Below the pieces are notes generated by a model, which saw only the letters and a program-made list of their open reading frames with translations, had not been told where the DNA came from and made no database searches. This document shows positions 28,453 through 57,455 of a stretch of DNA of 64,000 nt, in pieces. The position numbers and the translations under genes are program-made. The stretch's first letter is position 1; each line of letters starts with the position of its first letter. Location: contig NZ_FMHI01000002.1 in the NCBI RefSeq assembly GCF_900090145.1, positions 124,001-188,000 on the forward strand. Reading direction: 5' to 3'. This DNA comes from Streptomyces sp. WMMB 322 (lineage in GTDB: Bacteria; Actinomycetota; Actinomycetes; Streptomycetales; Streptomycetaceae).

Positions 28453-29552
28453 CAGTAGGCTCCCGTGATCACGGGGACGCCGGTGAACGTCTCCAGCGGG
28501 TGCACGTCGGCCACGGAGTGACCCGCGGAGCCGTCCGGCGCGCCCACCCGCCGCGCCGCGTCGCGTTCGCGGTTGTTGGGAAGCAGGGCCGACTTGCTCA
28601 GGTGGTGCATGACGACCTGGCCGGTCTCCCCCACCGCGACCGGCTTGCCGGTGTCCGGGTCCACGACCGTGTACGAGACGTGCGGCGAGGGCGAGTCGAA
28701 GACGGAGTCGCCGTCATCGGTGGCGGTCCGCTCGAAGGCGGCGCCGAGCGCCATCGTGCTGCCGTAGAGCCCGTACAGCGGGATGCCGGGGAAGACCTCG
28801 TCGCGCAGCACGTCCCGGGTGTCCCGGTCCATGCTGGCGCCGCACCAGGTGATCACCTGGACCTGGTCGCGCACCATGTCCACCAGCCGCTCGTCCCGTG
28901 CCAGCCGTTCCAGTAGGGGCGGGGGCGCCTGTATCGCCCCGATGCGCTGACTGCTCAGCACGGTGGCGGTCTGGGCGAGCACGTGGTCCAGGTACCGCTC
29001 GGACTCCTCGGCCCGTCCGTCCCGCAGACACAGGCGCACCCAGCGGGGGTCGAAGTCGACGGCGAAGCGGACGCCGCCGCGGCGGCGCGCGTGCTGGCCG
29101 GTCAGTTCGGCGTAGTCGTGCGGACCGGCGGGGCCCATGGACAGCCAGTGCACCCCGCGTGGATAGCCCCGCGCGTCCATGGCGCGCATGGCGTTCGCCA
29201 TCTCGACTTCCATCCAGTCCGCGAGGTACAGCACGCGCTTGGGGGCACCCGTGGTGCCGCCGCTCTCGAAGACGCCGATCACCTCGGCTCTCCCGCCGTA
29301 GCCCCGGGGCAGCAGATCCTCCACCGGCACGTGCCGGAAGTCGTCGACGACCTGCGGGAACAGCAGCAGATCGTCGGTGGTGCGCACATCGGTGCGCGGG
29401 TCGAAGTCCAGCCGCTCCAGCCGCTCCAGCCAGAACGGCGTGCCCGTATCCGGGGAGAAGTGCCACTGCATGGCCGCCCGGACGAGCTCGTCCGGGTCCA
29501 CGTCCGCGTCAGGCGGTGCGTCCAGCACGGCCAGGGCGTCCGCCGAATTCAT
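28452..29552 (-). CDS. LuxE/PaaK-like acyl-activating enzyme (GriD type)
   Basis: 366 aa. ATP-binding loop FESGGTTGAPKRVLY (about 99-113), then WCGASMDRDTRDVLRDE and LYGLYGSTMALG, the LuxE/PaaK-like adenylate-forming pattern without the long C-terminal domain of CoA ligases. GGGAGG lies 7 nt before ATG 29552. Predicted to activate a carboxylate as acyl-AMP and hand it to the LuxC-like reductase encoded next. Together they would form a two-subunit carboxylic acid reductase. Confidence 0.82.
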   Translation of the reverse strand: MNSADALAVLDAPPDADVDPDELVRAAMQWHFSPDTGTPFWLERLERLDFDPRTDVRTTDDLLLFPQVVDDFRHVPVEDLLPRGYGGRAEVIGVFESGGTTGAPKRVLYLADWMEVEMANAMRAMDARGYPRGVHWLSMGPAGPHDYAELTGQHARRRGGVRFAVDFDPRWVRLCLRDGRAEESERYLDHVLAQTATVLSSQRIGAIQAPPPLLERLARDERLVDMVRDQVQVITWCGASMDRDTRDVLRDEVFPGIPLYGLYGSTMALGAAFERTATDDGDSVFDSPSPHVSYTVVDPDTGKPVAVGETGQVVMHHLSKSALLPNNRERDAARRVGAPDGSAGHSVADVHPLETFTGVPVITGAY

Positions 29553-29601
29553 CCTGCCTCCCGTGCGCGGTGGGGATCCGTTGCCGAGTGCGGGTGCCTG
29601 G

Positions 29602-43965: not shown

Positions 43966-44081
43966 TCCTGCGGCCTGACCACGAGACACGTACACGTCAT
44001 GCCCGTCAGCCGGATGTCCTCTGCTAGCTGGGCCTCCGTCACGAGGCAGAGCACAGTCCGACGCCGGACGGTTTTCGCAGG

Positions 44082-44522
44082 TCAGGAGACTGGATTCGGC
44101 TTCTGGACCTCGGCTGAGCCTCCTTCGTGCCCCTCGCGTGCCCTTTCGGCGCGGTCGTGCCCTTCGGACCAGGCACTGAATGCGGCAGCCACCTCGGCAT
44201 CGCGGCCGGCCACTGGGCGGGCGTAGTGCCGAGTGGTCACGCTTGCATTCGAGTGGCCCAGCCGGTGAGCGGCGGTCATGACGCCGTACCGATCAGCCAC
44301 CCACGTGCCGTGCGACGCCCGGAGGTCATGAGGCGTAACGTCCGTCAGCCCAGCAGCGGACACGACGGGGTTGAAGTGCGCCTTGCGCCACTGGTTGTAG
44401 CGCAGGGGGCTCCCTTCCCCGTTGGTGAATAGCAGCCTGTCCGCACCCTCCGGCAAACCCTCCAAGTACGCCCCGAGGCGTGTGGCCAGGGCAGCAATCC
44501 TCAGCGCCGGCCAACGCCGCAT
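44082..44522 (-). pseudogene. Tyrosine-type site-specific integrase, N-terminally truncated
   Basis: 146 residues of the catalytic half remain: TPHDLRASHGTWVADRYG (HxLR box with an active-site Arg), AHRLGHSNASVTTRHYA with the LGH box and the nucleophilic Tyr. The N-terminal arm and core-binding domains and the first catalytic Arg are missing. Its 5' break lies within 25 bp of BGC-B's last gene. A relic of an integrative element. Confidence 0.8.
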
Positions 44523-44546
44523 GGACGGTCATGCTCGCCGGCGCGG

Positions 44547-45263
44547 CTAGACGATCCGTGCGACCAGCATGCCGTCGTGGCCTCGCTTGCCCACGGTCTG
44601 GAAGACGACGCCGTCGACGTCGTCCCGGCTTCCGACCAACTCCATCACCTGTTGCGTCGCCCGCACGGCGGGGTTCGCGGCTTCAGGGTCACGCACCTCA
44701 CCGGACCTCACAACGTTGTCGAAGACGATGAGGCTTCCCGAGTGCCCGAGCCGGAGGCAACTCTCGAAGTAGGCCACGTTGTTGTGCTGGTCGGCATCGA
44801 TGAAGAAGAAGTCGAACGGCTCGGCCCCTTCCTCGATCATCTCCTCCAGCTGCTCCGCGGCGTTCCCCATGCGGACCTCGACGCGGTCGTGCAGCCCCGC
44901 CTCCTTGATGTTGCCCGCGGCCACCAGGGCGTGCACGGGGTTGTTGTCGATGGTCACCATCCGTCCGTCGGCGGGCAGCGTCTTCGCAAGCCACAGAGCG
45001 CTGTACCCGCCCAGGCTGCCCACCTCGAGGATGCGACGGGCCCCGATGAGGCGTGCCAGGAGGCTGATCTGCTTGCCCTGGAGCTCGGTGACGTTGATCG
45101 GGGCCAGGTTCTCCTGCGCGGACACCTGCAGCACCCGTTCCAGATCAGGGTCCGGAGGGCACATCAAACGGGTCAGAAATGCTTCAGTCTCCGCCCACAC
45201 AGCTGAATCCACACTTCCACCAATCTGTAAACGTAGGTATTCCGTCCGGCTCGCATCAGGCAT
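44547..45263 (-). CDS. Class I O-methyltransferase (caffeoyl-CoA/catechol OMT-like)
   Basis: 238 aa. SAM-binding motif ILEVGSLGGYSALWLA (about 78-93), divalent-metal-site FFIDADQHNN (about 150) and VFDNVVRSG. Typical small cation-dependent O-methyltransferase. It starts inside the preceding gene (8-nt overlap), so it is translated together with the hydroxylase. In BGC-B it could methylate a carboxylate, phenol or newly formed hydroxyl of the peptide product. Last gene of the minus-strand series. Confidence 0.88.
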   Translation of the reverse strand: MPDASRTEYLRLQIGGSVDSAVWAETEAFLTRLMCPPDPDLERVLQVSAQENLAPINVTELQGKQISLLARLIGARRILEVGSLGGYSALWLAKTLPADGRMVTIDNNPVHALVAAGNIKEAGLHDRVEVRMGNAAEQLEEMIEEGAEPFDFFFIDADQHNNVAYFESCLRLGHSGSLIVFDNVVRSGEVRDPEAANPAVRATQQVMELVGSRDDVDGVVFQTVGKRGHDGMLVARIV

Positions 45264-46029
45264 TCATCTGCCGTGTCCAGAACTGCCTCGAAAACATCCG
45301 ACGCCACACGCCCATCATGTGCTGAAGCGCCTCGATCTCCGGAGCGGAGAGATCCGGGTGCCAGAAGTCGAACAGCAAGACAGTCCTGCGCTCACTTCCC
45401 TCGTTCCACACTTCGTGCTCGAACGAGTCGTCGAAGACGAAAGCCTTTCCTTCCTGCCACACACGTTCCTCGTCCGCCACGCGGATGCGTGACCCCTCGG
45501 TTGTGATCAGCGAAAGGTGGCACCTCAAGTGCGCGTTCGAGAACCCCGAGTGCGGGGCGATATGGGTGCCGCCGAGCACGGTCGAGAAGTAGGTCATGCC
45601 GCTGTCAGTGGCACCCGGAATCGGCGCCAGGGCCTTCAACGTCCTCGGGAATTCCGGAAGATTCCTCGTATACGGTCTGCCGATGCAGCACAGGTACTGC
45701 GCCCGCCAGTGCCCGGCTTCGGCGAGTTCCGGACTCGGTACGGAGCTGCTCGTGTCGCGGCCCCCCGCCCGCAGCTCGTCCGTGATGGTCTCCGCGGCCC
45801 CTTCGAGGTCTTCCAGCCACGGAAAATCGTGTCGGCCCCACCACGGCCGGGATGTGAGCCCTGGAAAGAAGATCGTCGGGTCCTGGGAGCCGGAGAACTC
45901 CCGGATACGACCCTGAGCCGTGATGTCCAGGCCTTCACGAATCCTCTCGACGTCCTTCGGGTCGACCTTTCCCAAGGAGAGCCACTTCTCGAACTCGCGC
46001 GGCCCTTCGGTGATCCACAGCTTCTCCAT
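45256..46029 (-). CDS. Aspartyl/asparaginyl beta-hydroxylase-like Fe(II)/2OG enzyme
   Basis: 257 aa. AspH fold: GGTHIAPHSGFSNAHLRCHL with iron ligand His160 and Arg169, and FDDSFEHEVWNEGSERRTVLL with His205 and Arg214/215; ends DFWHPDLSAPEIEAL, typical for the family. These enzymes hydroxylate Asp/Asn side chains; CinX does so in a lanthipeptide. The precursor's C-terminal region contains Asp residues (DLVDSDF), but the substrate might be a free metabolite. Confidence 0.85.
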   Translation of the reverse strand: MEKLWITEGPREFEKWLSLGKVDPKDVERIREGLDITAQGRIREFSGSQDPTIFFPGLTSRPWWGRHDFPWLEDLEGAAETITDELRAGGRDTSSSVPSPELAEAGHWRAQYLCCIGRPYTRNLPEFPRTLKALAPIPGATDSGMTYFSTVLGGTHIAPHSGFSNAHLRCHLSLITTEGSRIRVADEERVWQEGKAFVFDDSFEHEVWNEGSERRTVLLFDFWHPDLSAPEIEALQHMMGVWRRMFSRQFWTRQMNA

Positions 46030-46085
46030 GCGTCACGACTCCATCCGGTCTGCGTAGGGCGGCCACGAGCACTCGATGCCGCGGG

Positions 46086-46817
46086 TCACTCCGAGCCGAG
46101 CAGAGAGACGAGCCGGTCGATCTTCCGGCTCTCGCTTCCCGTCTCACCCGGGGACTTGGATGCGACGAAGCCCGTCATGGTCCGTCGCACCGCACGGCCG
46201 GCGGTCCGGTCGACCCGCTGGATGCAGTGGATGGTGCCTTCCTCGACCAGTACCAGTCTGTTGGGCTTGGGCACGATGGCCGTCAGACAGGGCGGCGCCA
46301 CGCTGACCTTTGCCTCCACGATCTCCAAGGGCGACATTCCGGATTCATCAATCTCGATGGCACCCGGATCGGTGTCCAGGAGGAGGAGCTCCCCCGCCCA
46401 CGAGGCCTTCCATTCGTCGTGCAGGAAGAAGACGAACTCGCCCCGCCGGCCCGCCGCAACGTCGTTGTGCCATCCCAGCCGGCTTCCGGCGGAGTACTTC
46501 CAGAAGCTGAACCCGACGATCGACCAGTCCTCGCCGGGCACGCCGAACATGTCGGAATGGGAGTGGAGTTCGCGCACGACCCGCCCGTAGGCGCGCGGAA
46601 GTTCGACCGTGCCCCCCTGCGCCGACTCCGATTCCATGTCGTGGCGCAGCACGGCTCCTCGTGACCTGAAGGCGGACCCGTCGGATTCTGGATAGACGAC
46701 GCTGGGCGTCTCCTGGAAGTCCTGATCAGCCATGAGATTCCGGATCTGAGCCAGATCCGGGGCTTCCAGGAAATCGTCGATTACGCGGAACCGTTCACCA
46801 CGGGCCACAGTCTTCAT
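46086..46817 (-). CDS. 2OG-Fe(II) oxygenase (prolyl-4-hydroxylase-like)
   Basis: 243 aa. Double-stranded beta-helix with iron ligands His117 and Asp119 (RLGWHNDV) and His197 (EGTIHCIQRV), and Arg211/212 for 2-oxoglutarate. AGGAG lies 7 nt before ATG. Resembles prolyl-hydroxylase-type oxygenases acting on peptides. A Pro is present in the core-like tail (STPSCG), so peptide hydroxylation is a natural guess. Confidence 0.85.
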   Translation of the reverse strand: MKTVARGERFRVIDDFLEAPDLAQIRNLMADQDFQETPSVVYPESDGSAFRSRGAVLRHDMESESAQGGTVELPRAYGRVVRELHSHSDMFGVPGEDWSIVGFSFWKYSAGSRLGWHNDVAAGRRGEFVFFLHDEWKASWAGELLLLDTDPGAIEIDESGMSPLEIVEAKVSVAPPCLTAIVPKPNRLVLVEEGTIHCIQRVDRTAGRAVRRTMTGFVASKSPGETGSESRKIDRLVSLLGSE

Positions 46818-46936
46818 GGTTCACTCCTGCCGGGATCGTCAAGACGTCCGTATCGTCATTTCGAGTCTCTGGATTTGTTCTTCCGCACCGAATTCCTGAT
46901 CGTCCGGCCGGTTTCCTGCTCTGAATTCGTTGCCGC

Positions 46937-48214
46937 TCACGCGTTCTGCAGTCCGGCCAACGTGCTCTGCTCTTCCGTGCGGATCAGACGACCCATGCCA
47001 AGAATGGGGAGGACAGTCAGCATTCCTCCCGCCACGCCGATCCACATGCACGCCATGATTCCGATGCGAGAGCCCATCCATCCCGCGAGAAGCGCGGCCA
47101 GAGGCATGCTTCCCCACACCACGAACCGGATGGAGGCGTTCATCCGCGCGAGCAGGTCCTTGGGACACACGCGCTGCCGCACGCTGACCTGGGTGATGTT
47201 GAAGACGACGGCCCCGAAGGTCATTCCGAACTGGCCCAGAACGACCAGACCGGTGGGCACGACGGATCCCCCGGTCTGGAACGCGCCTGCAGCCGGAAAT
47301 GCCGCGATCGACACCGCCGCGAGCAGCAGGCCCGCCGCCATGACCACACCGGCAGCCAGGGAACGGCGGATCCGGGGCAGGAGGAGAGAACCGGCGAGTC
47401 CGCCGAGTGCACCGATACCGAGCACGACACCCATGACCGTCGCCCCCAGGTCCAGCTCGTTGAGAATGAGCAGAGGCGTCAGCGTCATCACCACCGTCGC
47501 GAAGAAGTTCGAGACGCCGACAGAGACGCACAGCCGCCGAAGCACCGGGTTGCGGACGACGAATCGGATCCCGCCCAGGATCTCCTTGCCGAGGCCGGAG
47601 CGCTCCGTGTCCCCTCCGCGCTTTCGCGGCTCGCCGTCTTCGACCGTGGCCAGGACGCCGGCGCAGAGCACGTACGCGAGCGCGTCGACAGCGAGTACCA
47701 GTGGCGCACTCACCACCTTGAGAATCACGCCGGCCAGTGCCGGTCCGCCGGCGGAGGACACCTGTGCCGACGCCTCCAGCCGCGCGTTGGCGGGCTCAAT
47801 CGCCTCGCCGGAGACGATGAAGGGCACGTACGACTGGTATGCGACATCGAAGAACACCGACGCGACTCCGACGACGGCGCAGGCTGCGTACATCCACTCC
47901 AGTTCGAGCTGCCCGCCCGCCCACAGCAACGGGACCGCCCCGAGCGCCACGGCACGGACGACCGCGGACGTCATCATCGTCGACTTCTTCGACCATCGGT
48001 CGACCCACGCACCCGCCGGCAGTCCGACCAGCAGGTAGCAGACCGTGAGTGACGCGGTGAGGTATCCAACCTCGTCACTTCCGGCGTCCAGGGTCTCGAT
48101 CGCCACCACGGGCACCGCCAGAAGCCCGAACCGCTGCCCCATCTGTGAAAGGGACTGAGCGATCCAGAATCTGAGGAAGCGCCCGGAGTTCACGCTGTCC
48201 GCCGCAGAGCTCAC
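46937..48214 (-). CDS. MFS transporter (probable exporter)
   Basis: 425 aa, 12 predicted spans. VDRWSKKSTMM in the first cytoplasmic loop is the drug-exporter MFS pattern (DRxxRR-like). GTG start overlaps the radical SAM gene's stop (GTGA), with GGAGG 9 nt upstream. Likely exports the BGC-B product and gives self-protection. Resembles the macrolide-efflux/enterobactin-exporter group (MFS_3). Confidence 0.9.
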   Translation of the reverse strand: MSSAADSVNSGRFLRFWIAQSLSQMGQRFGLLAVPVVAIETLDAGSDEVGYLTASLTVCYLLVGLPAGAWVDRWSKKSTMMTSAVVRAVALGAVPLLWAGGQLELEWMYAACAVVGVASVFFDVAYQSYVPFIVSGEAIEPANARLEASAQVSSAGGPALAGVILKVVSAPLVLAVDALAYVLCAGVLATVEDGEPRKRGGDTERSGLGKEILGGIRFVVRNPVLRRLCVSVGVSNFFATVVMTLTPLLILNELDLGATVMGVVLGIGALGGLAGSLLLPRIRRSLAAGVVMAAGLLLAAVSIAAFPAAGAFQTGGSVVPTGLVVLGQFGMTFGAVVFNITQVSVRQRVCPKDLLARMNASIRFVVWGSMPLAALLAGWMGSRIGIMACMWIGVAGGMLTVLPILGMGRLIRTEEQSTLAGLQNA

Positions 48215-49218
48215 CTGACGTGTCCTCCGGTGGTCACGTTCTCCTCCAGGAACACGGATCCACGCAGTTCGAGCCCCGACTTTCCGGCGATGCCGCGTAC
48301 GTGGTCCAAGGTCACGACGAAGCGGTCCTTTCCGTAGATCAGGTACCGCTTCTGATCCACAGCGCGTGAGAAGTTCACCGTCATCACATTCGCGCCCGCT
48401 TCGAGGCCCCGCGACTGCCCCCCGTCCCCCGCTCGTTCCAGAGCGCTGACCGACGGGATCAGGAGGTGGGGATACGACACCCGCAGGCAGGCGATCACGT
48501 TCAGGGCGAGTTCGTTGTCGCCGATCGGCGACAGGCTCATCGGCGTGTTCGGAGCGGGGATGAACGGACTCACGCTGCACATGCTCACACCGAGTTCCCC
48601 GGCGAGCTGGATGTCGTCGATGACGCTGTCCAGACTCTGGCCGGGCAGGCTGGAGATCAGCCCCGTACCGACCTTGAAGCCCAGCTCCAGAAGGTCGTTC
48701 ATGCATCTCAGTCTTGTCTCGAGCGACTCGTGACGGATGGAGAAGTGGAGTTCGGGATCGCTCGTCTCGTGCTTCAGGATGTAGCTCGTGGCGCCCAGTT
48801 CGCGGAGCCTCGCGTACTGGGCCCGCTTGAGATTTCCCAGGTTGAGCAGGATCTCGACGTGCCCGCCGAACAGTTGCCGGATCCTCGGTATCGCGTCCTC
48901 GAGCGCGGGCACCACGGAGGGGGTCTCCCCGCCCTGCAGAAGGATGACGTCGATCCCGCTGTCCCTTATCAGCTCCGCGATGTCGACGATCTGATCACCG
49001 GTCAGGAAGTACGTGTCGTTCTCGCGGACGTTGTCACGGCGCATGGGGCAGTAGTCGCAGTTGACCCTGCACACATTCGTCAGTTCGATCACGCCTCGCG
49101 TGACGACCTTCCTTCCCCAGTGAGCGTCCCGGGCCGTGCGGCTTGCCGCGAACAGCTCTTCCTGCTCGGTGCCCCGGGCCACCAGGAGTCTGCGCATCTC
49201 TGCACGAGTCAGCATCAT
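48211..49218 (-). CDS. Radical SAM enzyme, HydE/PylB/BioB-like
   Basis: 335 aa. [4Fe-4S] cluster motif Cys50-x3-Cys54-x2-Cys57 (CRVNCDYC), GGETPSV for SAM, and a C-terminal BATS-like region (ANVMTVNFSRA). This is the biotin-synthase/HydE/PylB/MqnC group, which performs sulphur insertion, carbon migrations or cyclisations on small molecules, rather than the SPASM group that usually modifies RiPPs. TGATG overlap with the hydrolase gene. It may build an unusual building block for the carrier-protein branch. Confidence 0.87.
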   Translation of the reverse strand: MMLTRAEMRRLLVARGTEQEELFAASRTARDAHWGRKVVTRGVIELTNVCRVNCDYCPMRRDNVRENDTYFLTGDQIVDIAELIRDSGIDVILLQGGETPSVVPALEDAIPRIRQLFGGHVEILLNLGNLKRAQYARLRELGATSYILKHETSDPELHFSIRHESLETRLRCMNDLLELGFKVGTGLISSLPGQSLDSVIDDIQLAGELGVSMCSVSPFIPAPNTPMSLSPIGDNELALNVIACLRVSYPHLLIPSVSALERAGDGGQSRGLEAGANVMTVNFSRAVDQKRYLIYGKDRFVVTLDHVRGIAGKSGLELRGSVFLEENVTTGGHVR

Positions 49219-50444
49219 CAACCCTCACGCTCACGGATCTCGGAAACTTCGATGTCGATGGTCATCTGCGCCGTGCGGCCGGGATCTGCCCCGGACTCGG
49301 CATAGGTGGAAATCACGTCGGTCAACGAGGGCCTGAACTCGTATTCGCGCGGTTCGCCGTTCACCCGGACGAACACCCTTCCCGGCCGCACCAGTTGCTC
49401 GCCCAGAAGAACGCGGACCCGGGAGGCACCGGTCACTTGTATGTCGATGCCGGAGCGTCCAGTGGCGCGAGCCTCCACATGTGCCGCGCGTCCAGGAGTG
49501 ATGTGGCTGATCTCCACCCAGTGGGCCCGGCCGGCCCCGGACTCTCGTGCGCGATGCACGATCCGGCGGGGCCACGGTTCGCGCCGCGACGACCTGAAGC
49601 ACCGCACGACGCTGTCGAACTGCGGGGTGCCCGGCACGAACCGCATGGTGCTCAACTGGTGCTCTCCCTCGGCCACTTCCACGAACGAGATCCGCCGGTG
49701 GCCCAAAGACCTCAGATGCTCGACGGCGTCCCGGTCCAAGGCGCTGGGGATCTGCTTGTCGCGGCCACCGTGGATCACCGCGAGCGGCAGGTTGAGAAGG
49801 TTGGGAAGCAGCTCGCGCATCGTGCGGTCCGGGCCGAAGAGCTCCCAGACCGAGGGAGCCCCGTTGACAGACCCCGTCATGCTCGTCCGGTCCCAGCACC
49901 TCGCCGTCGTATTCCAGGCCGCGATGCCCCCCATCGACGCCCCCACCAGAGCACAGCGGTCGGGGTCCACGGAGAGGTTCTCCCGGGCCCACGAGAGGGC
50001 ACGCATCGGGAAGTCGCCCGGGTCGGGCGTCCACCGCGCTTCGGAGAACCGCCGGCCGAAGAGGCCCACCAGGTCGAAGTTGCTCTCCTCGTCAACCGGC
50101 TGCTGCGCGGTGGGACAGAGCAGAACGGCGCCGCAGGCGTCCGCCAACTCACGGAATTTCGGCTCGAGTTCCTCGCCCGAGCCGCCGACGCCGTGGAGAC
50201 CGACGATGACGCCCCTGCGTGCGGGGCCCCTGGTCTCCGGAACGTACAGCGATGTACGGGTGGTGCGCCCCCACGCGTCCGACAGCTCGATGGTCTCCGA
50301 GCGGTGTCTCTCCGGTTCGCCCCTCGCCGAGGAAAGGAGAGCCTGGACCTCGGGCAGTTCGACACCCCGCCTCTCGAACGCCGCTGCCGCCGCCTGTGGG
50401 GTGTCCGTCAGGCATATCCGTCGCGCCTCACGTGCCGTCCTCAT
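49218..50444 (-). CDS. Alpha/beta hydrolase (esterase/peptidase-like)
   Basis: 408 aa. Hydrolase fold with oxyanion motif GLHGVGGSG (about 82-90), nucleophile Ser170 (GASMGG), Asp229 (HGGRDKQ) and His262 (EGEHQ). The architecture recalls PHB-depolymerase/feruloyl-esterase-type or prolyl-oligopeptidase-type catalytic domains, followed by a beta-rich C-terminal region of about 110 residues. It starts directly after the acetyltransferase stop codon (TAGATG). It could release the core peptide or hydrolyse an ester intermediate. Confidence 0.85.
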   Translation of the reverse strand: MRTAREARRICLTDTPQAAAAAFERRGVELPEVQALLSSARGEPERHRSETIELSDAWGRTTRTSLYVPETRGPARRGVIVGLHGVGGSGEELEPKFRELADACGAVLLCPTAQQPVDEESNFDLVGLFGRRFSEARWTPDPGDFPMRALSWARENLSVDPDRCALVGASMGGIAAWNTTARCWDRTSMTGSVNGAPSVWELFGPDRTMRELLPNLLNLPLAVIHGGRDKQIPSALDRDAVEHLRSLGHRRISFVEVAEGEHQLSTMRFVPGTPQFDSVVRCFRSSRREPWPRRIVHRARESGAGRAHWVEISHITPGRAAHVEARATGRSGIDIQVTGASRVRVLLGEQLVRPGRVFVRVNGEPREYEFRPSLTDVISTYAESGADPGRTAQMTIDIEVSEIREREG

Positions 50445-51293
50445 CTACGCCCGCCCTTCGGCGGCCGACGCCGCGTTGCGCGCAGGCGCGACCGCCGCCG
50501 GTCGCTCTCCGCCGCAGGGCGCGAATCCGAGACTGACCGGAGTACGGCTGAGTCTCTTGGCCGCGTTACCCGCGAGCCACAGCGCGGAATGGAGGTCTGC
50601 CGCTTCGAAGGGCACCTCCAACGACGTCGCCCCGGTCGCCGGAGCCAGGCTCTTCGCCGCCTCCACAAGTGTGTCGAGGTCGGTGACGGAATCACAGGGA
50701 TTGCCGCTCAGGACGAGACGCGAGCGGTCCAGAACCCATGCGAGGCGGATCGCGCCGGGGGTGCACTGCTCCACCCCGAGCAGCTCCTCCACTGCCGGTG
50801 AGCTGCCGTCCGGGACGGGGACCGTGAGGGTGCCGGTGGCGGTTCGCACGGGACCGGAGCCGGACGGCAGCCCTTCTTGCGCGTGCGGCAACGGGATGAG
50901 GTAGCGGTGCAGGCGGGGTCCGCCGCAACGCATGCGCAGCCGCCGGGCCAGGTGCGCTTCGGGCTTGCTGGGCTCCACCCAGGCGAGCACGCCCCGGAAG
51001 CCGTTGCGACTCGCCCAGTCCCGGACGGCGAGCACCGTCCGGAGACCGGCACCGGACGCCTGGAACCTCTCGTCGACGAACAAGCCCTTCAGCAGCAGCC
51101 GCTCGTGCCACCGCATGCCGCGGTGCACGCTCGCCAGCGTTCCGTCCGCCGTGAACAGCCCCATCCAGCAGTAGTCCCGCTCCGCTGCGAGTTCGCGGCG
51201 GACCACGTTGCCGTCGATGCCGTCGATGTCACACAGCCGCAATGCCGAGTCGACGTCGTCTGCCGCGAGAGGACGCGCGGTGAAATCCTTCAC
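50445..51293 (-). CDS. GNAT family acyltransferase
   Basis: 282 aa. GNAT core with FTARPLAADDVDSALRLCD, LLLKGLFVDERFQASGAGLRTVLA (acyl-CoA loop region about 79-102) and a longer C-terminal half than simple acetyltransferases. GTG at 51293 begins 1 nt after the upstream TAG; a GTG at 51329 would overlap the upstream gene. In BGC-B it may transfer acetyl or the acyl group held on the carrier protein to the peptide. Confidence 0.75.
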   Translation of the reverse strand: MKDFTARPLAADDVDSALRLCDIDGIDGNVVRRELAAERDYCWMGLFTADGTLASVHRGMRWHERLLLKGLFVDERFQASGAGLRTVLAVRDWASRNGFRGVLAWVEPSKPEAHLARRLRMRCGGPRLHRYLIPLPHAQEGLPSGSGPVRTATGTLTVPVPDGSSPAVEELLGVEQCTPGAIRLAWVLDRSRLVLSGNPCDSVTDLDTLVEAAKSLAPATGATSLEVPFEAADLHSALWLAGNAAKRLSRTPVSLGFAPCGGERPAAVAPARNAASAAEGRA

Positions 51294-51294
51294 G

Positions 51295-52680
51295 CTAGCC
51301 GCAGCCACCTCTGCTCGCTTCGGACGCACTGGTCAGCGCGATGAAGGTGGTTCCTGGCGGCGGCGCGGTGTCGGCCGTGCCCTCCACCTCGAGCATGCGC
51401 CGCGCGGCGGTCCGGCCGGCCAGCAGGTTCATCATCAGCTGGGGGGTCACGAAGCGGGAGTCCAGATCCTGGATCACCCAGTGGAAGACTCCGAGGTCGA
51501 ACGGGTAGTAAGTGGGGTAGAGCAGACTGGACTCCGCCATCCGCACCTGACGCGAGAGTCCGGTACCGGGAAGGATGCGGTATCCAACGTGCATCACGAG
51601 CTCGTCGTCCTCGAGATTGTCGTTGATGAACCGGGCGCTGTTACGTGCCGTCTCCCTCGTCTCGCCCGGGCCGCCGAAGACGACGTTCACCCTCACAGGC
51701 AGCGAGTGCCTCCGGCTTCTGTCCAGGAAGCGTGAGACGTGCCTGGTGCGGAAGGACTTTCCGAGGTTGGCCATCACCTCGTCGTCGAGGCTGTCGGGCG
51801 AGACGACGACGTTCTCCACCCCGCTGTCGGTCAGCAGCCCGGCGAACTCGTCGTCGAAGGGCTTCGGCGTGAAGTAGGCCGACCACGTCAGCCCTTCCAG
51901 CCGGAGCTCGTGAACCAGCCGGACGACTTCCTTCGCGTAGCGCAGTTCGCTGTTGAAGATCCCGTCGGTGAAGAACACCCGCCGGTACCCGGCACGGTGG
52001 ATGCCGCGGATCTCGTCGGCCAGCACGTCCATCGGCTTGAGATCCCCGCTGTTGTCGCCGTCGATGTAGGCGTAGGGGCAGTAGGCGCAACCCTGGTAGC
52101 AGGTCTTCCTGCGGGTCTCGACACCGATCATCGCCTTGTGCGAATCCGAGTAGGCGCCCATGAGGAGTGGGGGATGGTGAAGGACATCCGTCAGGAATTC
52201 CGCGTGCCGTCTGCCCTGCAGGACCAGGCTCCGCCCCCGGAACGAGCCGGGGTGCCGGGCTATGTCGAGCATGACCTGCTCGCCCGGCCCGATGACGCCG
52301 GCGTCGAGTCCCAGTCTTTCGACCAGTGTGCCGGCAAAGAGACTGAAACCCGGCCCACCACCGATGAGTACAGGGTCTTGAGCACGTCGGGAGAGTTCTT
52401 CCCTCACCCGCTGCACGAATGAGACGTAGTTGTCCACGTGGGTGTCGCAGGCGATTTCGATCGGGTCGATGTTTCGTATGGTGAACCCGATCACGTCCCA
52501 GTCGCGGTCGAGCCACTCGAAACTGGTCAGCTGGTCCGGCGTCTGGACGAAATCCACCAGCAGCGTCTCGTGTCCGGCACGGTCCAATGCGTCCTGTACG
52601 CACCGGACACCGATGGGAAAGATCGGCTCGTTGCCGGCCATGGGGAGACTCGCAAGGTTGACCAACACCACGCGCGACAT
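51295..52680 (-). CDS. B12-binding-type radical SAM protein
   Basis: 461 aa. N-terminal Rossmann-like region typical of B12-binding domains (GVRCVQDALDRAGHETLLVDF, LIGGGPGFSLFAGTLVERLG), without the classical DxHxxG motif. Radical SAM cluster motif Cys194-x3-Cys198-x2-Cys201 (CYQGCAYC), then FFTDGIFNSEL and GGPGETRE. ATG at 52680 preferred because AAAGG lies 6 nt upstream; an ATG 24 nt earlier has none. Such proteins methylate unreactive carbons, rearrange or cyclise. Encoded 144 bp after the precursor, so the prime candidate for modifying it. Confidence 0.9.
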   Translation of the reverse strand: MSRVVLVNLASLPMAGNEPIFPIGVRCVQDALDRAGHETLLVDFVQTPDQLTSFEWLDRDWDVIGFTIRNIDPIEIACDTHVDNYVSFVQRVREELSRRAQDPVLIGGGPGFSLFAGTLVERLGLDAGVIGPGEQVMLDIARHPGSFRGRSLVLQGRRHAEFLTDVLHHPPLLMGAYSDSHKAMIGVETRRKTCYQGCAYCPYAYIDGDNSGDLKPMDVLADEIRGIHRAGYRRVFFTDGIFNSELRYAKEVVRLVHELRLEGLTWSAYFTPKPFDDEFAGLLTDSGVENVVVSPDSLDDEVMANLGKSFRTRHVSRFLDRSRRHSLPVRVNVVFGGPGETRETARNSARFINDNLEDDELVMHVGYRILPGTGLSRQVRMAESSLLYPTYYPFDLGVFHWVIQDLDSRFVTPQLMMNLLAGRTAARRMLEVEGTADTAPPPGTTFIALTSASEASRGGCG

Positions 52681-52788
52681 GTTGAACCTTTCGCCTGCGG
52701 ACATGACTGGGACACAAGGGCCGCCGAATAGCAGCGAACACCCTGTGCCCCAGCTGAGCGGTTGAACTCGAATCTGCGGAATGCTTCA

Positions 52789-52819
52789 GCCGCTTTGCGC
52801 AGATCCGCGGTCAAGCGGC
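52789..52819 (-). terminator. Attenuator-like hairpin after the precursor gene
   Basis: GCCGCTT (52789-52795) and AAGCGGC (52813-52819) form a 7-bp stem with a 17-nt loop in the 144-bp gap between precursor and radical SAM genes. Weak hairpins at this place commonly lower enzyme expression relative to a RiPP precursor. Confidence 0.45.
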
Positions 52820-52824
52820 CTCGG

Positions 52825-53118
52825 TCAGCCGCAGGACGGGGTGCTCATGGTGATGAGGAAGTCGGAGTCGACCAAGTCGAACAGCGACTCACAGGCCTTG
52901 TCGAAACGCTCGGAGTCGACGAGCATCAGCGCCTCCATCGACTCTTTGACGAGGACGAGACCGGCGTCGCTGAGAGCCTGACGCGGGTTCTCCTGCAGCG
53001 CTTCTGCGAAGGCCTTGTCAGAACCGAGGCGAGACACCAGTGCCTCGAGTGCCAGGGCCGCCTTCTCGGCCTCCGCTACCTGCTCGGAGGTGAACTGAGT
53101 TGTGGCCGTAACAGCCAT
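52825..53118 (-). CDS. Putative RiPP precursor with Nif11/NHLP-like leader
   Basis: 97 aa. Residues 10-55 form a leader-like helix pair (TSEQVAEAEKAALALEALVS, then DKAFAEALQENPRQALSDAG), like Nif11/NHLP leaders where NPRxAL is typical. The C-terminus DFLITMSTPSCG is short, hydrophobic then Ser/Thr/Pro/Cys/Gly, as a core peptide. Cys at 76 and 96. GAAGGAG stands 7 nt before ATG. It has its own promoter and a long untranslated upstream region, and sits amid two radical SAM enzymes, oxygenases, methyltransferases and an exporter. No GG cleavage site is evident. It could alternatively be a scaffold or chaperone rather than a substrate. Confidence 0.8.
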   Translation of the reverse strand: MAVTATTQFTSEQVAEAEKAALALEALVSRLGSDKAFAEALQENPRQALSDAGLVLVKESMEALMLVDSERFDKACESLFDLVDSDFLITMSTPSCG

Positions 53119-53696
53119 TTTCGTATCTCCTTCGTAGGGCTGAAGATGCTCTCCCTTGAAATGTCAAAGTACTTAGTGCTCCACATGGCGTCAACCGTGT
53201 AATTATGGCCGGATATCCACTTCCCTGGCAGCTGTTGGAGCCGCCTCCAGGGGGCCGTGCGGTGTTGCAGGAATCGCGATTTCCGCCGCGCCCGATGGGG
53301 AAATCGAGCGTCCCTCCGGTGCCGGCCCGACCGGCCGGTATCGCGATGAAATCGCTGCTCATGAGCGCGTGGTCAGCTGCTGGTGTCACTTTGCGATTCC
53401 CCCCCCCTCACCCGGAGACCACAGAAGGCAAGCAACCGCGGTGGGAGCGGAATCCAATAATCCGCGGTGCGTCGGCTCGAATACCTCCGGAGTCGACGGC
53501 TGTATTCGGCCACCAGACGGGCACGTAATAAGTGAGGAAAACGGAGCCGAGCATATCCGGGAAGGGAGAGTGATTCGACATCGGAACGGAGGTTCTCATT
53601 CCATCTGCGCAACTCCGGCGGGTAACGGAGTCGGCTATTCCAGTTGTCGGCGCGAATCAAGATTTTCCAGCGAGAACCGAGTCGTCGCGGGGTGCC
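53119..53696. other. Upstream region of the precursor gene
   Basis: 578 bp, clearly AT-richer than the genome average. Contains a sigma-70-like promoter for the precursor (53166-53194) and an 8-C run (about 53399-53406). A 95-codon minus-strand frame (53373-53660) lacks a ribosome-binding site and is not called. Confidence 0.6.
53166..53194 (-). promoter_or_regulatory. Promoter of the precursor gene
   Basis: Minus-strand TTGACG (53194-53189), 17-bp spacer, TACTTT (53171-53166), about 48 nt before the ATG. Good match to HrdB-type -35/-10 boxes with ideal spacing, placing the precursor under its own promoter apart from the carrier/ligase genes. Confidence 0.7.
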
Positions 53697-54692
53697 TTAC
53701 GGAAGCACCGCTTCCAGCAGGAAGGTCCCCAAGGCCAGCGGACGCACCGACGTGCACCGCATGCCGGCTCCCTCGAGCAGGGAGACATACTCGGAACGGG
53801 ATCGCTCGCGGCCACCAGTGACGACAAGCATCTGCATGTCCCACCAGGAGGCGAGGGACAGGGAGTCGTCTTCCGGGAGAAGCCTTTCGATGATCAGGAG
53901 TTTGTCGCCAGGTGACATGGCAGCCCGGCAGACATCGAGCAGTCGCTCACATCGGATGTCGTCCCAATCGTGGAGAACACGCGACAGAAGATACAGGTCG
54001 CCGTCCTCCGGGAGTCTTTCGAAGAAATCCCCGGGAACTGCTCCGAGCCGGGACTTCAGCGAGTGATCGGCGAACTCACGGTTCAGTCCCTCGGCAACGT
54101 GGTCCCGGTCGACAACGCATCCGGTCGTTCGTGGTGCGGCCTCGAGAACGGACTTCAGGAGCTCCCCGTTGCCGCCTCCGATGTCCACGACATGCGAAAC
54201 CCCCGAGAAGTCATAGGAATTGCACAGTTCGCGCGCGACGATCTGTGCGCAGGCGGCCATGGCGCGGTCGAAGCGCCGCGCCCGGAGAGCATCGGCGCCG
54301 AAATACTCGAACTGCTCCTGTCCGAATTCCTGCAGCCACCCCGTTCCTCCTGTCCGGACCGAGTTGGCCACATGGGCCCATGCCGAATAGCAGTCTTCAC
54401 CGTAGAAGACCACCAAGTCCCGGAAGTTGCCGCCCGGTTGGAGCAGACGGGTCAGGCTGGTGGCCGTGTAGGCGTCCTCCGCGTTCCGCTCCGCGAGGCC
54501 CAGCCCTGACAGATGCCGGAGCAGCCGCGATACGGCTTGCTCGTCGCACACTGCCGTCTTTGCTATTTCCGCGGCGCTGCGGGGAGTTTCACCGAGAACG
54601 TCGAGGACGCCGGTCCGCACTCCGGCGTACACCGACTGCGAGATCCACGTACCGGTCATCAGCGACAGAAGTCGCTCGGCCGCTTGGGCCAC
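53697..54692 (-). CDS. SAM-dependent O-methyltransferase (Methyltransf_2)
   Basis: 331 aa from GTG 54692 (GGGAAGCC just upstream; the fold then starts at once with LLSLMTGTWISQSVYAGVRTG). A GTG at 54755, 2 bp after the carrier-protein stop, would add 21 residues. Winged-helix dimerisation domain, then VVDIGGGNGELLKSV (SAM loop), DRDHVAEG and LHDWDDIRCERLL (general-base His). Similar in type, not closely, to the BGC-A enzyme. Being next to a carrier protein, it may methylate a carrier-bound aromatic acid. Confidence 0.85.
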   Translation of the reverse strand: MAQAAERLLSLMTGTWISQSVYAGVRTGVLDVLGETPRSAAEIAKTAVCDEQAVSRLLRHLSGLGLAERNAEDAYTATSLTRLLQPGGNFRDLVVFYGEDCYSAWAHVANSVRTGGTGWLQEFGQEQFEYFGADALRARRFDRAMAACAQIVARELCNSYDFSGVSHVVDIGGGNGELLKSVLEAAPRTTGCVVDRDHVAEGLNREFADHSLKSRLGAVPGDFFERLPEDGDLYLLSRVLHDWDDIRCERLLDVCRAAMSPGDKLLIIERLLPEDDSLSLASWWDMQMLVVTGGRERSRSEYVSLLEGAGMRCTSVRPLALGTFLLEAVLP

Positions 54693-54757
54693 TGGCTTCC
54701 CTTTCCCAGGCGTCGACGGATTGCGGGTGCCGCGGGTTGCGCCGGGCTGCACCACTC

Positions 54758-55087
54758 CTAGCCAGGCATTTCAGTGATCTCAGCACCGGCGGAGCAGAGG
54801 CAGCCGGCCCAGCCGGCCACGGTGCGCTTCCCCGGGTCGAGAAGCACCTCGTCGGCCAGCTCGGTCCCGCTCAGTTCTTCCACCTCGGTCGCGAGTGCCA
54901 TCCAGTCGAGCGAACTGAGGCCGAGAAGAGAAAGGTCCGTGTTCCGCTGTTCGTCGATCTGCGCCAGGAAGGACTCGGCCTCCTCGGCTCCGATTCCGGG
55001 GGTTCCGGACAGACGCCGGGCCACGAGGCGTGCCACCAGACGTTCCAGTTCGAGCAGACGGATCCCGTCCGAAGATGCGATGTGCAT
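54758..55087 (-). CDS. Stand-alone acyl/peptidyl carrier protein
   Basis: 109 aa. Helix II start LGLSSLDWMALATEVEE, with Ser59 as the probable phosphopantetheine site, and LADEVLLDPGKRTVAGWAGCL in the helix III-IV part. An N-terminal extension of about 45 residues and a Cys-containing end (CLCSAG) are unusual. Four bp downstream of the ligase gene, so the pair is a loading module: the ligase adenylates an acid and loads it on this carrier. Confidence 0.8.
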   Translation of the reverse strand: MHIASSDGIRLLELERLVARLVARRLSGTPGIGAEEAESFLAQIDEQRNTDLSLLGLSSLDWMALATEVEELSGTELADEVLLDPGKRTVAGWAGCLCSAGAEITEMPG

Positions 55088-55091
55088 GAAG

Positions 55092-56399
55092 CTAATCCCC
55101 CCGGGTCACAAGTCTTTTCAGTTCTTCGCGGTCCGGTTTGCCGACGATGTCCACAGGCAGCTTCTCGCAGAGCACCACACGTGGCGCCGCCAAGCCGTCG
55201 ACGAGCCGGCGCAGAACCCGCTCGGCTTCCGCCCGGTCGGCATCCGGTCCCGCGACCACCGCGCAGAAGTCCTCCTGCTCAGGGGTCTCCTTGCGGGGAA
55301 GCGCGAAGAGATAGACGTCCTCGACACCCGGAAGGGCCCTCAGCGCCTCGTCCGCCTCCTTGACGTCGACGAACCGACCGTTGAGCCGCAGCGCCGGACG
55401 TGCGCGTTCGACGAAGTGGACCTCCCCGCCGCTGTGGTGATCCACGATGTCCCCGGTGTTCCACTCGTGGGCGGAGTCCGGCTCCTCGCCCAGGTAGCCC
55501 TGGACGGGTGCGTCCATCCGCAGACGCAGCTCACCGCGCGCACCGGGTGCCGGGTGGGTGATCTCAACGCCCGGGATGGGGTTGCCGATGCCTTGCTTCC
55601 CGATGAAGATCGCGCCGGTTTCGCTCGAGCCGTATCCCCGGGACAGAGGAACACCGAAACGCTTCCGGAACTGGACGGCCAACCCCTCACTGACGGGCCC
55701 CGCGCCGACCATCGCGGTACGAAGGCGCCCCGCGGTCCCAGTTGGACGGGTGTCCGTGAGAAGCCGGGCGACAGGTGGGGTCAAGCCGAGCACCTCGCCC
55801 CAGCCTCCATCGATCTTTCCGGCCAGCCGGGACATGCGCACCACCGGTTCGGCGTCCACATCTGCGCCGTTCAGCAGCGCACTCACCGCGAATCCCCAAC
55901 CGAAGGAGTGCATCAGAGGAATCGGTACGAGGACCTGGGAGGCGGGCCCCATCCCGAGCTTGACGCGGTATCCATGGGCCTCGCCCAACACACTCGCTGT
56001 TCCGCGGCGGACTGCCTTGGGCCGGCCGGTGCTGCCCGAACTCAGGTGCAGGGCAAGGGTGGAGTCCATTTCCTCCACGGGCGCGTCCACGGCCGGTGCC
56101 CGGACGGTGCCCGCCTGATCCATGACATAGGCGCTCCGCGTCACATCCATCTGCGGTGGCTTGGAGCACGGAAGCGGCACGGCATCCACCGCCCAGGTCG
56201 CCAATGTGGCGATCAAGAGCTCACGGCCCTGTAAGCCGGCCTGGATGACCAGGCTTCCCGAGCCTGCACCGGCCTGACGAAGATTGTTGCTGAGGCGACC
56301 GGTCAAGTCACCGAGTAAGGAGACCTCTTGACCGTCGATCCGGGCTCCGCCGGCCAGGATCCGCGACAGCACTTCTCTGCGTGGGCCATTGGTCGTCAT
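55092..56399 (-). CDS. AMP-dependent synthetase/ligase (stand-alone adenylation enzyme)
   Basis: 435 aa. Adenylation motifs: A3 LHLSSGSTGRPKAVRRG, A5 GYGSSETGAIF, A7-like EWNTGDIVDHH, LRLNGRFVDVKEADEAL, and the C-terminal A10 Lys in DIVGKPDREEL. N-terminal part shorter than in NRPS adenylation domains. Start: ATG 56399 (GTG 56408 also possible; both SDs weak). First gene of BGC-B. Codon 28 is TTA (56316-56318), so the cluster's first enzyme is under bldA control. Substrate unknown; aryl or small acids are plausible. Confidence 0.85.
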   Translation of the reverse strand: MTTNGPRREVLSRILAGGARIDGQEVSLLGDLTGRLSNNLRQAGAGSGSLVIQAGLQGRELLIATLATWAVDAVPLPCSKPPQMDVTRSAYVMDQAGTVRAPAVDAPVEEMDSTLALHLSSGSTGRPKAVRRGTASVLGEAHGYRVKLGMGPASQVLVPIPLMHSFGWGFAVSALLNGADVDAEPVVRMSRLAGKIDGGWGEVLGLTPPVARLLTDTRPTGTAGRLRTAMVGAGPVSEGLAVQFRKRFGVPLSRGYGSSETGAIFIGKQGIGNPIPGVEITHPAPGARGELRLRMDAPVQGYLGEEPDSAHEWNTGDIVDHHSGGEVHFVERARPALRLNGRFVDVKEADEALRALPGVEDVYLFALPRKETPEQEDFCAVVAGPDADRAEAERVLRRLVDGLAAPRVVLCEKLPVDIVGKPDREELKRLVTRGD

Positions 56400-56852
56400 C
56401 CCAGTCACCGGCGGGCTCGCACACGAGCGTTGGCCGGGAGAGTCAGCCGTCTGAGACTTGGCACGGACAGCACAGGTAGCAAGGTCCCCCCAAACCTCTG
56501 CAAACAGCCGGTTTCATCACCGAACTGTTCGTTCCTGATCGGGCCAGCGCCGCGATCACCCCCCACCATAGCGGTGTACGCAGCAACTCACCTGAACTCA
56601 ACAGAAGTTGTGCGTGACCTGCTGAGCTGCTCTGGGTAGCCCTCGACGCGGCGAAGGAACTGGATGAAGATCCTCCGCGGCGAGCAGACACGTGCAAATC
56701 AACTCATCGAGGAGCGGCTCAATGGCGATGCTTGAGGCGATCCCCCGGGCCCCAAGGTGAACAAATGAAGGGCTACCCGTCCCGGATGGGTAGCCCTTCC
56801 GGCCTCCCCCGCCGACACACGCCTAGATCTTCACCTCCGCGGCGCCCTTGCA
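56400..56852. other. Region between BGC-B and the CRISPR array
   Basis: 453 bp. It probably holds the promoter of the ligase gene. A small frame on + (56664-56735, MKILRGEQTRANQLIEERLN) reads naturally and is preceded in another frame by VALDAAKELDE, suggesting the frameshifted tail of a lost gene. A terminator hairpin follows at 56767-56799. Confidence 0.45.
56767..56799. terminator. Terminator hairpin
   Basis: GAAGGGCTACCC and its exact complement form a 12-bp stem with a 9-nt loop. Placed so that it could end transcription of the CRISPR array (minus strand) or of the lost + strand gene. Confidence 0.85.
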
Positions 56853-57004
56853 GGGACCATCCACGCGGGCGCGGGGAGCACTACAAGTCCTCCGGGTCGG
56901 CTTGTCCGGGCCCGGGACCATCCCCGCGGACGCGGGGAGCACGAGACCCAGGCGTCTGCGGCGTGGGTGATCTGGGGGACCATCCCCGCGGGCGCGGGGA
57001 GCAC
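56853..57004 (-). CRISPR. Three-repeat type I-E CRISPR array, no cas genes
   Basis: Three 29-bp repeats at 56853-56881, 56914-56942 and 56976-57004, separated by unrelated spacers of 32 and 33 nt. On the minus strand each begins GTGCTCCCCGCG and ends GGGATGGTCCC (the last repeat has GTGGATGG), the I-E repeat type with its inner CCCCGCG/CGCGGGG stem. Differences of one base in the first and middle repeats show mild decay; the most changed is at the leader-distal end, as usual. No cas gene lies in the window. Confidence 0.9.
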
Positions 57005-57308
57005 ACTCACTGACCAGGCTCTTTACATGGCGCAGAGCCCGCAACTACTGACTTTCTCTGAGTCCGACATAAACCCCAAACCTGCACATCCTCTGCCCCG
57101 ACCAACCGCAAATGGCCACACCAACACCAAGTCACTGAACACAGACGGAATATGACCATGCACAGCCATGTCAACGCTTGGTGCCGAAAGCAGCTGGCGC
57201 AGGGGACCGATGACGGTGCGTAAGGCGGCGATCCTGGCCCACAGATGGCCCACACAGGCTGGCCAAGGCCGAGAAACACGGGGAACTGGGTGAGACAGAC
57301 CGCAACGC
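57005..57308. promoter_or_regulatory. Possible CRISPR leader
   Basis: The 180 bp next to the last repeat are AT-rich for this genome (TACTGACTTTCTCTGAG, ACATAAACCCC, AACACAGACGGAATATG), on the leader side if the array is transcribed on the minus strand. The rest up to the tRNA terminator shows nothing recognisable. Confidence 0.5.
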
Positions 57309-57343
57309 AGAGGGCGCGTCTCCAACCCGGAGACGCGCCCTCT
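57309..57343 (-). terminator. tRNA-Ser terminator
   Basis: AGAGGGCGCGTCTCC and its exact complement form a 15-bp stem with a 5-nt loop (AACCC), 25 bp downstream of the tRNA 3' end. Confidence 0.88.
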
Positions 57344-57368
57344 GACCTGCTAGTTCTCTGACCTCTGC

Positions 57369-57455
57369 GGAGGCGGTGGGATTCGAACCCACGGTGAGGG
57401 GTTACCTCACGACGGTTTTCAAGACCGTTCCCTTCGGCCGCTCGGGCACACCTCC
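57369..57455 (-). tRNA. tRNA-Ser (anticodon UGA)
   Basis: 87 nt. The acceptor stem pairs GGAGGTG with CACCTCC-type ends (GGAGG...CCTCC), T loop GGTTCGAATCC, a long variable arm (TGAGGTAACCCCTCA) typical of class II serine tRNA, and anticodon loop CTTGAAA giving UGA. CCA is not encoded. A usual integration target for mobile elements; the island to its left ends here. Confidence 0.95.

What the first reader, a model, noticed from the sequence alone, without database searches (positions are those of the whole stretch)
44547..56399. Undescribed RiPP-like cluster mixing two radical SAM enzymes, Fe/2OG enzymes and a carrier-protein loading module
Twelve consecutive minus-strand genes, mostly overlapping or abutting, surround a 97-aa leader-plus-core peptide. 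The set (B12-type radical SAM, HydE/PylB-like radical SAM, AspH-like and 2OG oxygenases, two O-methyltransferases, GNAT, hydrolase, MFS, stand-alone adenylating ligase and carrier protein) does not match any named RiPP class I know. The presence of a carrier/ligase pair suggests a hybrid in which an externally activated acid is joined to a ribosomal peptide.
Basis: partly seen in the sequence, partly recalled or inferred. Interest (0 to 1): 0.95.

Follow-up and report, generated by a model that had tools for sequence, protein, structure and literature searches.

The report
Acid-capped ribosomal peptide gene cluster
A bacterium, probably a Streptomyces, carries a twelve-gene set whose core recurs in 15 related clusters of other bacteria, built around a small ribosomal peptide in which a Ser-Cys pair near the end never varies; two radical enzymes are predicted to remodel that end and a separately activated acid, whose loading genes were apparently exchanged between relatives, is likely attached to it, which would be a new way to make capped sulfur-containing peptides.

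Summary
In detail: twelve minus-strand genes (44547-56408) include a 97-aa peptide gene whose leader belongs to the Os1348/NHLP RiPP family (over its cut-off). Fifteen related loci (several actinobacterial genera and Burkholderia), found through the B12 radical SAM protein, all carry the peptide upstream of it, plus a HydE-like radical SAM protein and a tandem-GNAT protein; the 14 whose contig reaches far enough also carry the ligase and a carrier protein. The ligase has Ser where five NRPS domains have Asp235, so it probably activates a non-alpha-amino acid. Ligase, carrier protein and O-methyltransferase are closest to those of Kitasatospora humi, whereas both radical enzymes group with Streptomyces nymphaeiformis: the acid-loading module was apparently exchanged. 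Model: radical enzymes act on Ser-Cys; ligase and carrier protein activate an acid; the tandem GNAT joins them. The joining step is inferred, and a coevolution test for it was negative. Eight searches of an open-licence paper library found no described cluster with this gene set. New variant of a known kind (RiPP), product unknown.

The parts
52825..53118 (-). 97-aa precursor peptide: Os1348/NHLP leader (about residues 11-92), tail TPSCG
   Evidence: NF038399 48.1 bits, cut-off 40; model with six helices and low-confidence tail; Ser95-Cys96 invariant
51295..52680 (-). B12-binding radical SAM protein (461 aa from the ATG at 52680; ORF open to 52704)
   Evidence: PF04055, PF02310; TIGR04072 202.4 bits, below cut-off 360; CxxxCxxC in 16 of 16 rows
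50445..51329 (-). tandem GNAT-fold protein, predicted acyltransferase
   Evidence: AF2 pLDDT 87.3; Foldseek best 2wpx, E 5.3e-9; loop motif Q-x-x-G-x-G at residue 90
49218..50444 (-). alpha/beta hydrolase with C-terminal extension
   Evidence: weak esterase matches; Ser170-Asp229-His262 in 15 of 15 rows
48211..49221 (-). HydE-like radical SAM protein
   Evidence: TIGR03956 203.8 bits, cut-off 254.6; nearest solved relatives HydE; CxxxCxxC in 16 of 16 rows
46937..48193 (-). MFS transporter, predicted exporter
   Evidence: PF07690; GTG start at 48193
46086..46817 (-). 2OG-Fe(II) oxygenase
   Evidence: PF13640, PF13661; His-Asp-His-Arg in 15 of 15 rows
45256..46029 (-). AspH-like Fe/2OG hydroxylase
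   Evidence: PF05118, E 1.6e-39; His160-His205-Arg215 in 12 of 12 rows
44547..45263 (-). O-methyltransferase OMT3 (caffeoyl-CoA type)
   Evidence: PF01596, E 5.9e-40
53697..54755 (-). O-methyltransferase OMT2, part of the acid-loading module
   Evidence: PF00891; nearest solved relatives include MmcR, CalO6 and a phenazine enzyme; 63% to L020
54758..55087 (-). stand-alone carrier protein
   Evidence: PF00550 25.2 bits, cut-off 20.8; SL motif in 12 of 12 aligned rows
55092..56408 (-). stand-alone AMP-forming ligase
   Evidence: PF00501; Lys424 and Ser168 in 15 of 15 rows; Ser168 aligns with Asp of five NRPS domains
53119..53696 (-). 578-bp intergenic stretch before the peptide gene, presumed promoter region
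   Evidence: position; Shine-Dalgarno at its end; the one promoter-like site in 44000-57400 lies here (53231-53202), but the scan expects 0.9 by chance

Best explanation
The cluster encodes an Os1348/NHLP-type ribosomal peptide whose invariant Ser-Cys near the C-terminus is predicted to be remodelled by a B12 radical SAM enzyme and a HydE-like radical SAM enzyme, and whose trimmed product is likely capped, by a tandem GNAT, with an acid that a stand-alone ligase would load onto a stand-alone carrier protein. Shown by sequence comparison: the leader family, the fixed Ser-Cys, the constant partnership of peptide, two radical enzymes, tandem GNAT, ligase and carrier protein, intact catalytic motifs in most of the enzymes, and discordant ancestry of the loading module. 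Inferred: that both radical enzymes act on the peptide (C-methylation or cross-linking by the B12 enzyme, C-S chemistry at the Cys by the HydE-like one); that the core is only a few residues; that the two Fe/2OG enzymes hydroxylate it; that the hydrolase helps release; that the acid lacks an alpha-amino group and is possibly an O-methylated aromatic acid here; that the GNAT makes the amide; and that the MFS protein exports the product.
For: Leader over the NF038399 cut-off and a model of six helices with a loose tail, as in the Os1348 crystal (PMC7726476). Peptide, B12 enzyme, GNAT and HydE-like gene in 15 of 15 relatives; ligase in 14 of 14 and carrier protein in 14 of 14 whose contig reaches them. 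Ser-Cys 17 of 17. Ligase Ser168 opposite Asp in five of five NRPS domains. Trees: B12 enzyme and HydE-like enzyme with L011 (98/99, 99/94), ligase with L020 (100/100). Tandem GNAT fold; tandem GNAT NpuN acylates a RiPP and its relatives occur with NHLP or Nif11 precursors (PMC13060382).
Against: No product or modification is known. GNAT distances show no extra correlation with loading-module distances (partial r 0.06; 735 of 2000 permutations as high). The GNAT loop motif is at the expected place in 9 of 14 sequences only. No leader peptidase is recognisable. The GNAT of the related pfl cluster showed no activity on the full-length peptide (PMC12636437). Most of the neighbourhoods of the 84 further clusters of B12 enzyme relatives listed at 47-74% identity (P0002-P0085) were not seen.
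Confidence: 0.48

Rival explanations
1. Carrier-peptide (pearlin-like) pathway: the peptide is a scaffold, its encoded Cys is modified while attached, and a single Cys-derived amino acid is released, then acylated.
For: A pearlin pathway turns a C-terminal Cys into 3-thiahomoleucine on a carrier peptide with a cobalamin radical SAM enzyme (PMC9303977, passages). Ser-Cys is fixed while the residues after it vary.
Against: None of the twelve proteins matched a PEARL/LanB-type family; the Cys is genetically encoded; in 12 of 17 precursors residues other than one terminal residue are not an issue, but in 10 of 17 the tail is longer than one residue, so the Cys is not the last residue.
Confidence: 0.2
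2. The peptide is a helper, not the substrate: a small carrier-protein-bound acid is the real substrate of the radical and Fe/2OG enzymes, and the peptide's Cys serves as a sulfur donor or docking partner.
For: Stand-alone ligase, carrier protein, hydrolase and methyltransferases resemble small carrier-bound pathways; the HydE-like protein is related to biotin synthase (69.9 bits to TIGR00433), which inserts sulfur (recalled); Ser-Cys is the only Cys site that never varies.
Against: The leader family's pos/pfl members are modified near their C-terminus (PMC12636437); the two radical enzymes group alike and differently from the ligase, which fits action on the peptide rather than on the exchanged acid.
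Confidence: 0.14
3. Ordinary uncapped RiPP: ligase, carrier protein and GNAT make a separate modification such as acetylation or self-protection, and no acid is joined to the peptide.
For: Some GNATs of natural-product clusters serve self-resistance (PMC13060382, passages); the coevolution test was negative.
Against: Ligase and carrier protein are present in every relative whose contig reaches them; exchange of a loading module with retention of the rest is easiest to read as a change of building block.
Confidence: 0.18

Closest known systems
Os1348 cluster of Pseudomonas sp. Os17 and the pos/pfl clusters (PMC7726476, PMC12636437)
   Same: Precursor leader family, six helices and loose C-terminus, a GNAT gene, modifications near the C-terminus, transporter genes.
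   Different: They use an HEXXH Fe/2OG enzyme, an MNIO-nitroreductase and a Gln-rich ARMD end; here two radical SAM enzymes, ligase, carrier protein, AspH/2OG enzymes and a Ser-Cys end.
Selidamides and N-acylated lanthipeptides (lipolanthines, goadvionins; PMC13060382, PMC9505594, passages)
   Same: GNAT (in NpuN a tandem GNAT) acylates a ribosomal peptide; NHLP or Nif11 leaders occur.
   Different: Lanthionine synthetase and fatty-acid or polyketide donors there; here no lanthionine enzyme among the twelve and a dedicated ligase/carrier pair.
Pearlins, e.g. 3-thiahomoleucine (PMC9303977, passages)
   Same: C-terminal Cys chemistry on a carrier peptide with a B12 radical SAM enzyme.
   Different: No PEARL match here; the Cys is encoded.
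Biphenomycins (PMC12707348, passages)
   Same: A ribosomal peptide turned into a very small product with a B12 radical SAM enzyme and Fe/2OG enzymes.
   Different: Biaryl chemistry, MNIO and TldD-type protease there; none matched here.
HydE of [FeFe]-hydrogenase maturation
   Same: Nearest solved relatives of the protein at 48211-49221 (best E 6e-52).
   Different: Below the HydE cut-off in 6 of 6 family members scored; HydE's PATTA reads PSVSA here (against 33); no HydG over its cut-off in the genome.

Membership tests
RiPP with Os1348/NHLP-clan leader | leader over the family cut-off (NF038399, 40 bits) | tested here: met
   48.1 bits
RiPP with Os1348/NHLP-clan leader | short peptide gene conserved beside modifying enzymes | tested here: met
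   15 of 15 close relatives
RiPP with Os1348/NHLP-clan leader | product derived from the peptide | not testable with these tools
   needs expression and mass spectrometry
pos/pfl-type cluster | HEXXH Fe/2OG enzyme and MNIO-nitroreductase; Gln-ARMD end | tested here: not met
   no such family among the matches of the twelve proteins; precursor ends in Ser-Cys plus tail
Acylated RiPP (selidamide or lipolanthine type) | GNAT acyltransferase | tested here: inconclusive
   tandem GNAT fold, activity unknown; coevolution test negative
Acylated RiPP (selidamide or lipolanthine type) | lanthionine synthetase, as in the published members named in the passages read | tested here: not met
   no match among the twelve proteins
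Pearlin | PEARL (LanB-like aminoacyl-tRNA ligase) | tested here: not met
   no match among the twelve proteins
HydE equivalog (TIGR03956) | score over 254.6 bits | tested here: not met
   203.8 bits; five relatives 197.6-225.7
HydE equivalog (TIGR03956) | partner HydG in the genome | tested here: not met
   best 32.9 bits, on the HydE-like gene itself, cut-off 312.15; HydF was not searched
NRPS amino-acid adenylation domain (TIGR01733) | score over 317.4 bits and Asp235 | tested here: not met
   65.1 bits; Ser in place of Asp (number 235 recalled)

The most novel reading that the evidence does not exclude
A new RiPP class with a plug-in acid cap: two unrelated radical SAM enzymes, one of them a HydE relative turned into a peptide-cysteine enzyme, convert an encoded Ser-Cys into a tiny sulfur-containing core, and an exchangeable ligase/carrier-protein/methyltransferase cassette supplies different acids that a tandem GNAT joins to it, so that evolution varies the cap while the ribosomal core stays fixed.
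Probability: 0.33. Interest if true: 0.87.

Novelty: new variant of a known kind. Interest (0 to 1): 0.7.

Why it matters
If true, it would give the HydE branch of radical SAM enzymes a peptide substrate and show ribosomal peptides being capped through a stand-alone acid ligase and carrier protein. RiPP families usually vary the core; here the core end is frozen and the acid module is what was exchanged. The fixed Ser-Cys and the small constant enzyme set make the chemistry directly testable by co-expression.

Tried and rejected
Variable core: rejected; Ser-Cys is invariant, only the residues after it vary.

Hydrogenase maturation: rejected for the HydE-like gene. HydF was not searched.

Coevolution of GNAT and loading module, 12 loci: no signal (partial r 0.06; 735 of 2000 permutations as high). 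The highest value was for the HydE-like enzyme (0.34; 82 of 2000), then the hydrolase (0.17; 299 of 2000); I do not interpret them.

Genomic island: a Phage_integrase fragment, lower GC and a nearby tRNA-Ser suggest one, but no exact copy of 14 bases or more of the tRNA-Ser region occurs elsewhere in the window, so it is not shown.

Promoter and terminator scans of 44000-57400: no more than chance (1 against 0.9; 6 against 6.6).

Plasmid copies of the B12 enzyme: no match at E 1e-60.

HydE-like gene in 396 genomes of the phylum: own genome plus three at 33-36%; two of those three were read and carry HydE's PATTA segment.

Foldseek of the precursor model: nothing significant (best E 1.8); RiPP precursors SonA and Os1348 are among the top rows but I do not count that as evidence. 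Sequence search of solved structures with the precursor: best E 0.53, not a relative.

Os1348-family search in 296 genomes of the class: 3 over the cut-off (own and two others); the two others were not compared further except for reading L040.

A PF01261 label on P0086 was not apparent to me in its sequence (by eye).

Eight literature searches listed no cluster with this gene set; the library holds open-licence PMC papers only, and lists were capped.
Full report

The peptide is a real gene of RiPP type. It scores 48.1 bits with NF038399 (Os1348 family NHLP clan), cut-off 40, has a strong Shine-Dalgarno and evolves under purifying selection (window/L011 dS 0.83, dN 0.18). Ten homologues besides itself were found, all ending PSCG. 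The model has six helices over residues 11-92 and a low-confidence tail. The Os1348 crystal likewise has six helices and six unseen C-terminal residues (PMC7726476; abstract, parts 2-4 and Discussion seen).

Relatives. A scan of genome contigs with a 24-row B12-enzyme alignment gave 17 loci: 15 (L011-L025) at 51-75% identity and two (L026, L027) at 23-26%. Of the 15, tblastn at 1e-4 finds the peptide in 15, B12 enzyme 15, GNAT 15, HydE-like 15, ligase 14, hydrolase 14, 2OG 13, carrier protein 11, AspH 11, the window's MFS type 5, OMT2 1 (L020) and OMT3 1 (L011). L014 ends inside the HydE-like gene. Frames with a DSL motif beside the ligase supply the carrier protein in L021, L024 and L025 (by eye). 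L025 gave no hydrolase. L013 and L014 are near-identical in the peptide gene (dS 0.03) and not independent. L024 has two peptide genes. L026 and L027 lack the peptide and the other core genes. Only two of 391 genomes of the order, one of them the window's own, carry the B12 enzyme at 1e-30, so the cluster is rare. The protein search lists 84 further clusters of B12-enzyme relatives at 47-74% identity (P0002-P0085), including named Chromobacterium, Roseibium and Paucibacter entries; their neighbourhoods were mostly not seen.

The core. Ser95 and Cys96 are invariant in 17 of 17 precursors, Pro94 in 16 and Cys76 in 12; an overlapping set of 25 agrees. After the Cys come 1 to 20 residues.

The enzymes. 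Both radical SAM proteins keep CxxxCxxC (16 of 16 each), 2OG keeps His-Asp-His-Arg (15 of 15), AspH His-His-Arg (12 of 12), the hydrolase Ser-Asp-His (15 of 15). The HydE-like protein scores 203.8 bits with TIGR03956, cut-off 254.6; five relatives score 197.6-225.7. Its nearest solved relatives are HydE (best E 6e-52), but HydE's PATTA segment, also in two distant hits, is PSVSA here, with Pro, Val, Ser and Ala invariant in the family. HydE works on a cysteine-bound iron synthon by adenosylation (PMC12752695, passages): a Cys-directed role here is plausible, not shown. No HydG passes its cut-off in the genome. The B12 enzyme is nearest to TIGR04072 (202.4 bits, cut-off 360) and, among solved structures, to a tryptophan C2-methyltransferase (E 3e-22).

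The acid-loading module. The ligase has the AMP-ligase motifs and Lys424. In an alignment with five NRPS domains of the same genome, the Asp235 position (number recalled from PheA) is Asp in 5 of 5 and Ser in all the ligases (15 of 15). OMT2's nearest solved relatives include MmcR, CalO6 and a phenazine-specific enzyme, so an O-methylated aromatic acid is my guess for the cap in this strain.

Discordant ancestry. Trees put the window with L011 for the B12 enzyme (98/99) and the HydE-like enzyme (99/94) but with L020 for the ligase (100/100). Window/L011 identities are 73 (peptide), 74 (B12), 78 (HydE-like), 71 (AspH), 76 (OMT3), 61 (hydrolase) and 54 (GNAT), but 40 (ligase) and 23 (carrier protein); window/L020 are 61, 51 and 63 for ligase, carrier protein and OMT2, but 56 and 65 for the radical enzymes. 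In L011 and L020 the ligase follows MFS; in the window it lies upstream of the peptide, and its three genes have lower GC3 (0.75-0.79 against 0.81-0.85). The simplest reading is replacement of the loading cassette. Only the ligase of the cassette was put in a tree.

How it likely works. Inferred: the ligase loads an acid on the carrier protein; the radical enzymes modify Ser-Cys on the leader-bound peptide; Fe/2OG enzymes hydroxylate; the leader is removed by an unknown peptidase, perhaps with the hydrolase; the tandem GNAT joins acid and amine; OMT3 methylates; MFS exports. Precedent: the tandem GNAT NpuN acylates a RiPP, and its relatives occur with NHLP or Nif11 precursors (PMC13060382, passages); for the Os1348-type pfl cluster the authors suggest N-terminal acylation after leader removal, though the GNAT showed no activity on the full-length peptide (PMC12636437, parts 1-2 and passages). 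Against: no GNAT/module coevolution, and the GNAT loop motif at the expected place in 9 of 14.

Comparison. The leader family and a GNAT link it to pos/pfl; the end of the peptide, the radical enzymes and the loading pair do not. No PEARL, lanthionine synthetase, HEXXH or MNIO family was among the matches of the twelve proteins. In the library searched no listed paper described this set.

Verdict. The cluster, its conservation and the discordant module are solid; the acid-peptide union is the best of several readings, at about even odds.

Noticed in passing
56853-57004: Three 29-nt direct repeats, spacing 61 and 62, like a minimal type I-E CRISPR array (type recalled), between the ligase and tRNA-Ser.
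   Followed up: no
44082-44522: 146-aa frame matching only the C-terminal part of Phage_integrase, next to OMT3; with tRNA-Ser at 57367-57455 it brackets the cluster.
   Followed up: partly
27007-31209: Aromatic amino acid lyase (PF00221) next to a second AMP-binding gene, 13 kb from the cluster: possibly another pathway, or a source of an aromatic acid.
   Followed up: no
38179-41055: 958-aa TIR domain plus WD40-type beta-propeller protein.
   Followed up: no
L040, 174-2885: An Os1348-family peptide (NF038399, 64 bits) lies between a DUF692-like and an ATP-grasp-like frame (by eye); its end reads TCSC-rich.
   Followed up: no
L020, 5818-7293: A third radical SAM protein sits between GNAT and hydrolase in Kitasatospora humi, in the cluster whose precursor ends NSCD and which lacks 2OG and AspH matches.
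   Followed up: no
44547-45263 and 55092-56408: TTA codons occur only in OMT3 (one) and the ligase (two), which may mean bldA-dependent translation (role recalled).
   Followed up: no
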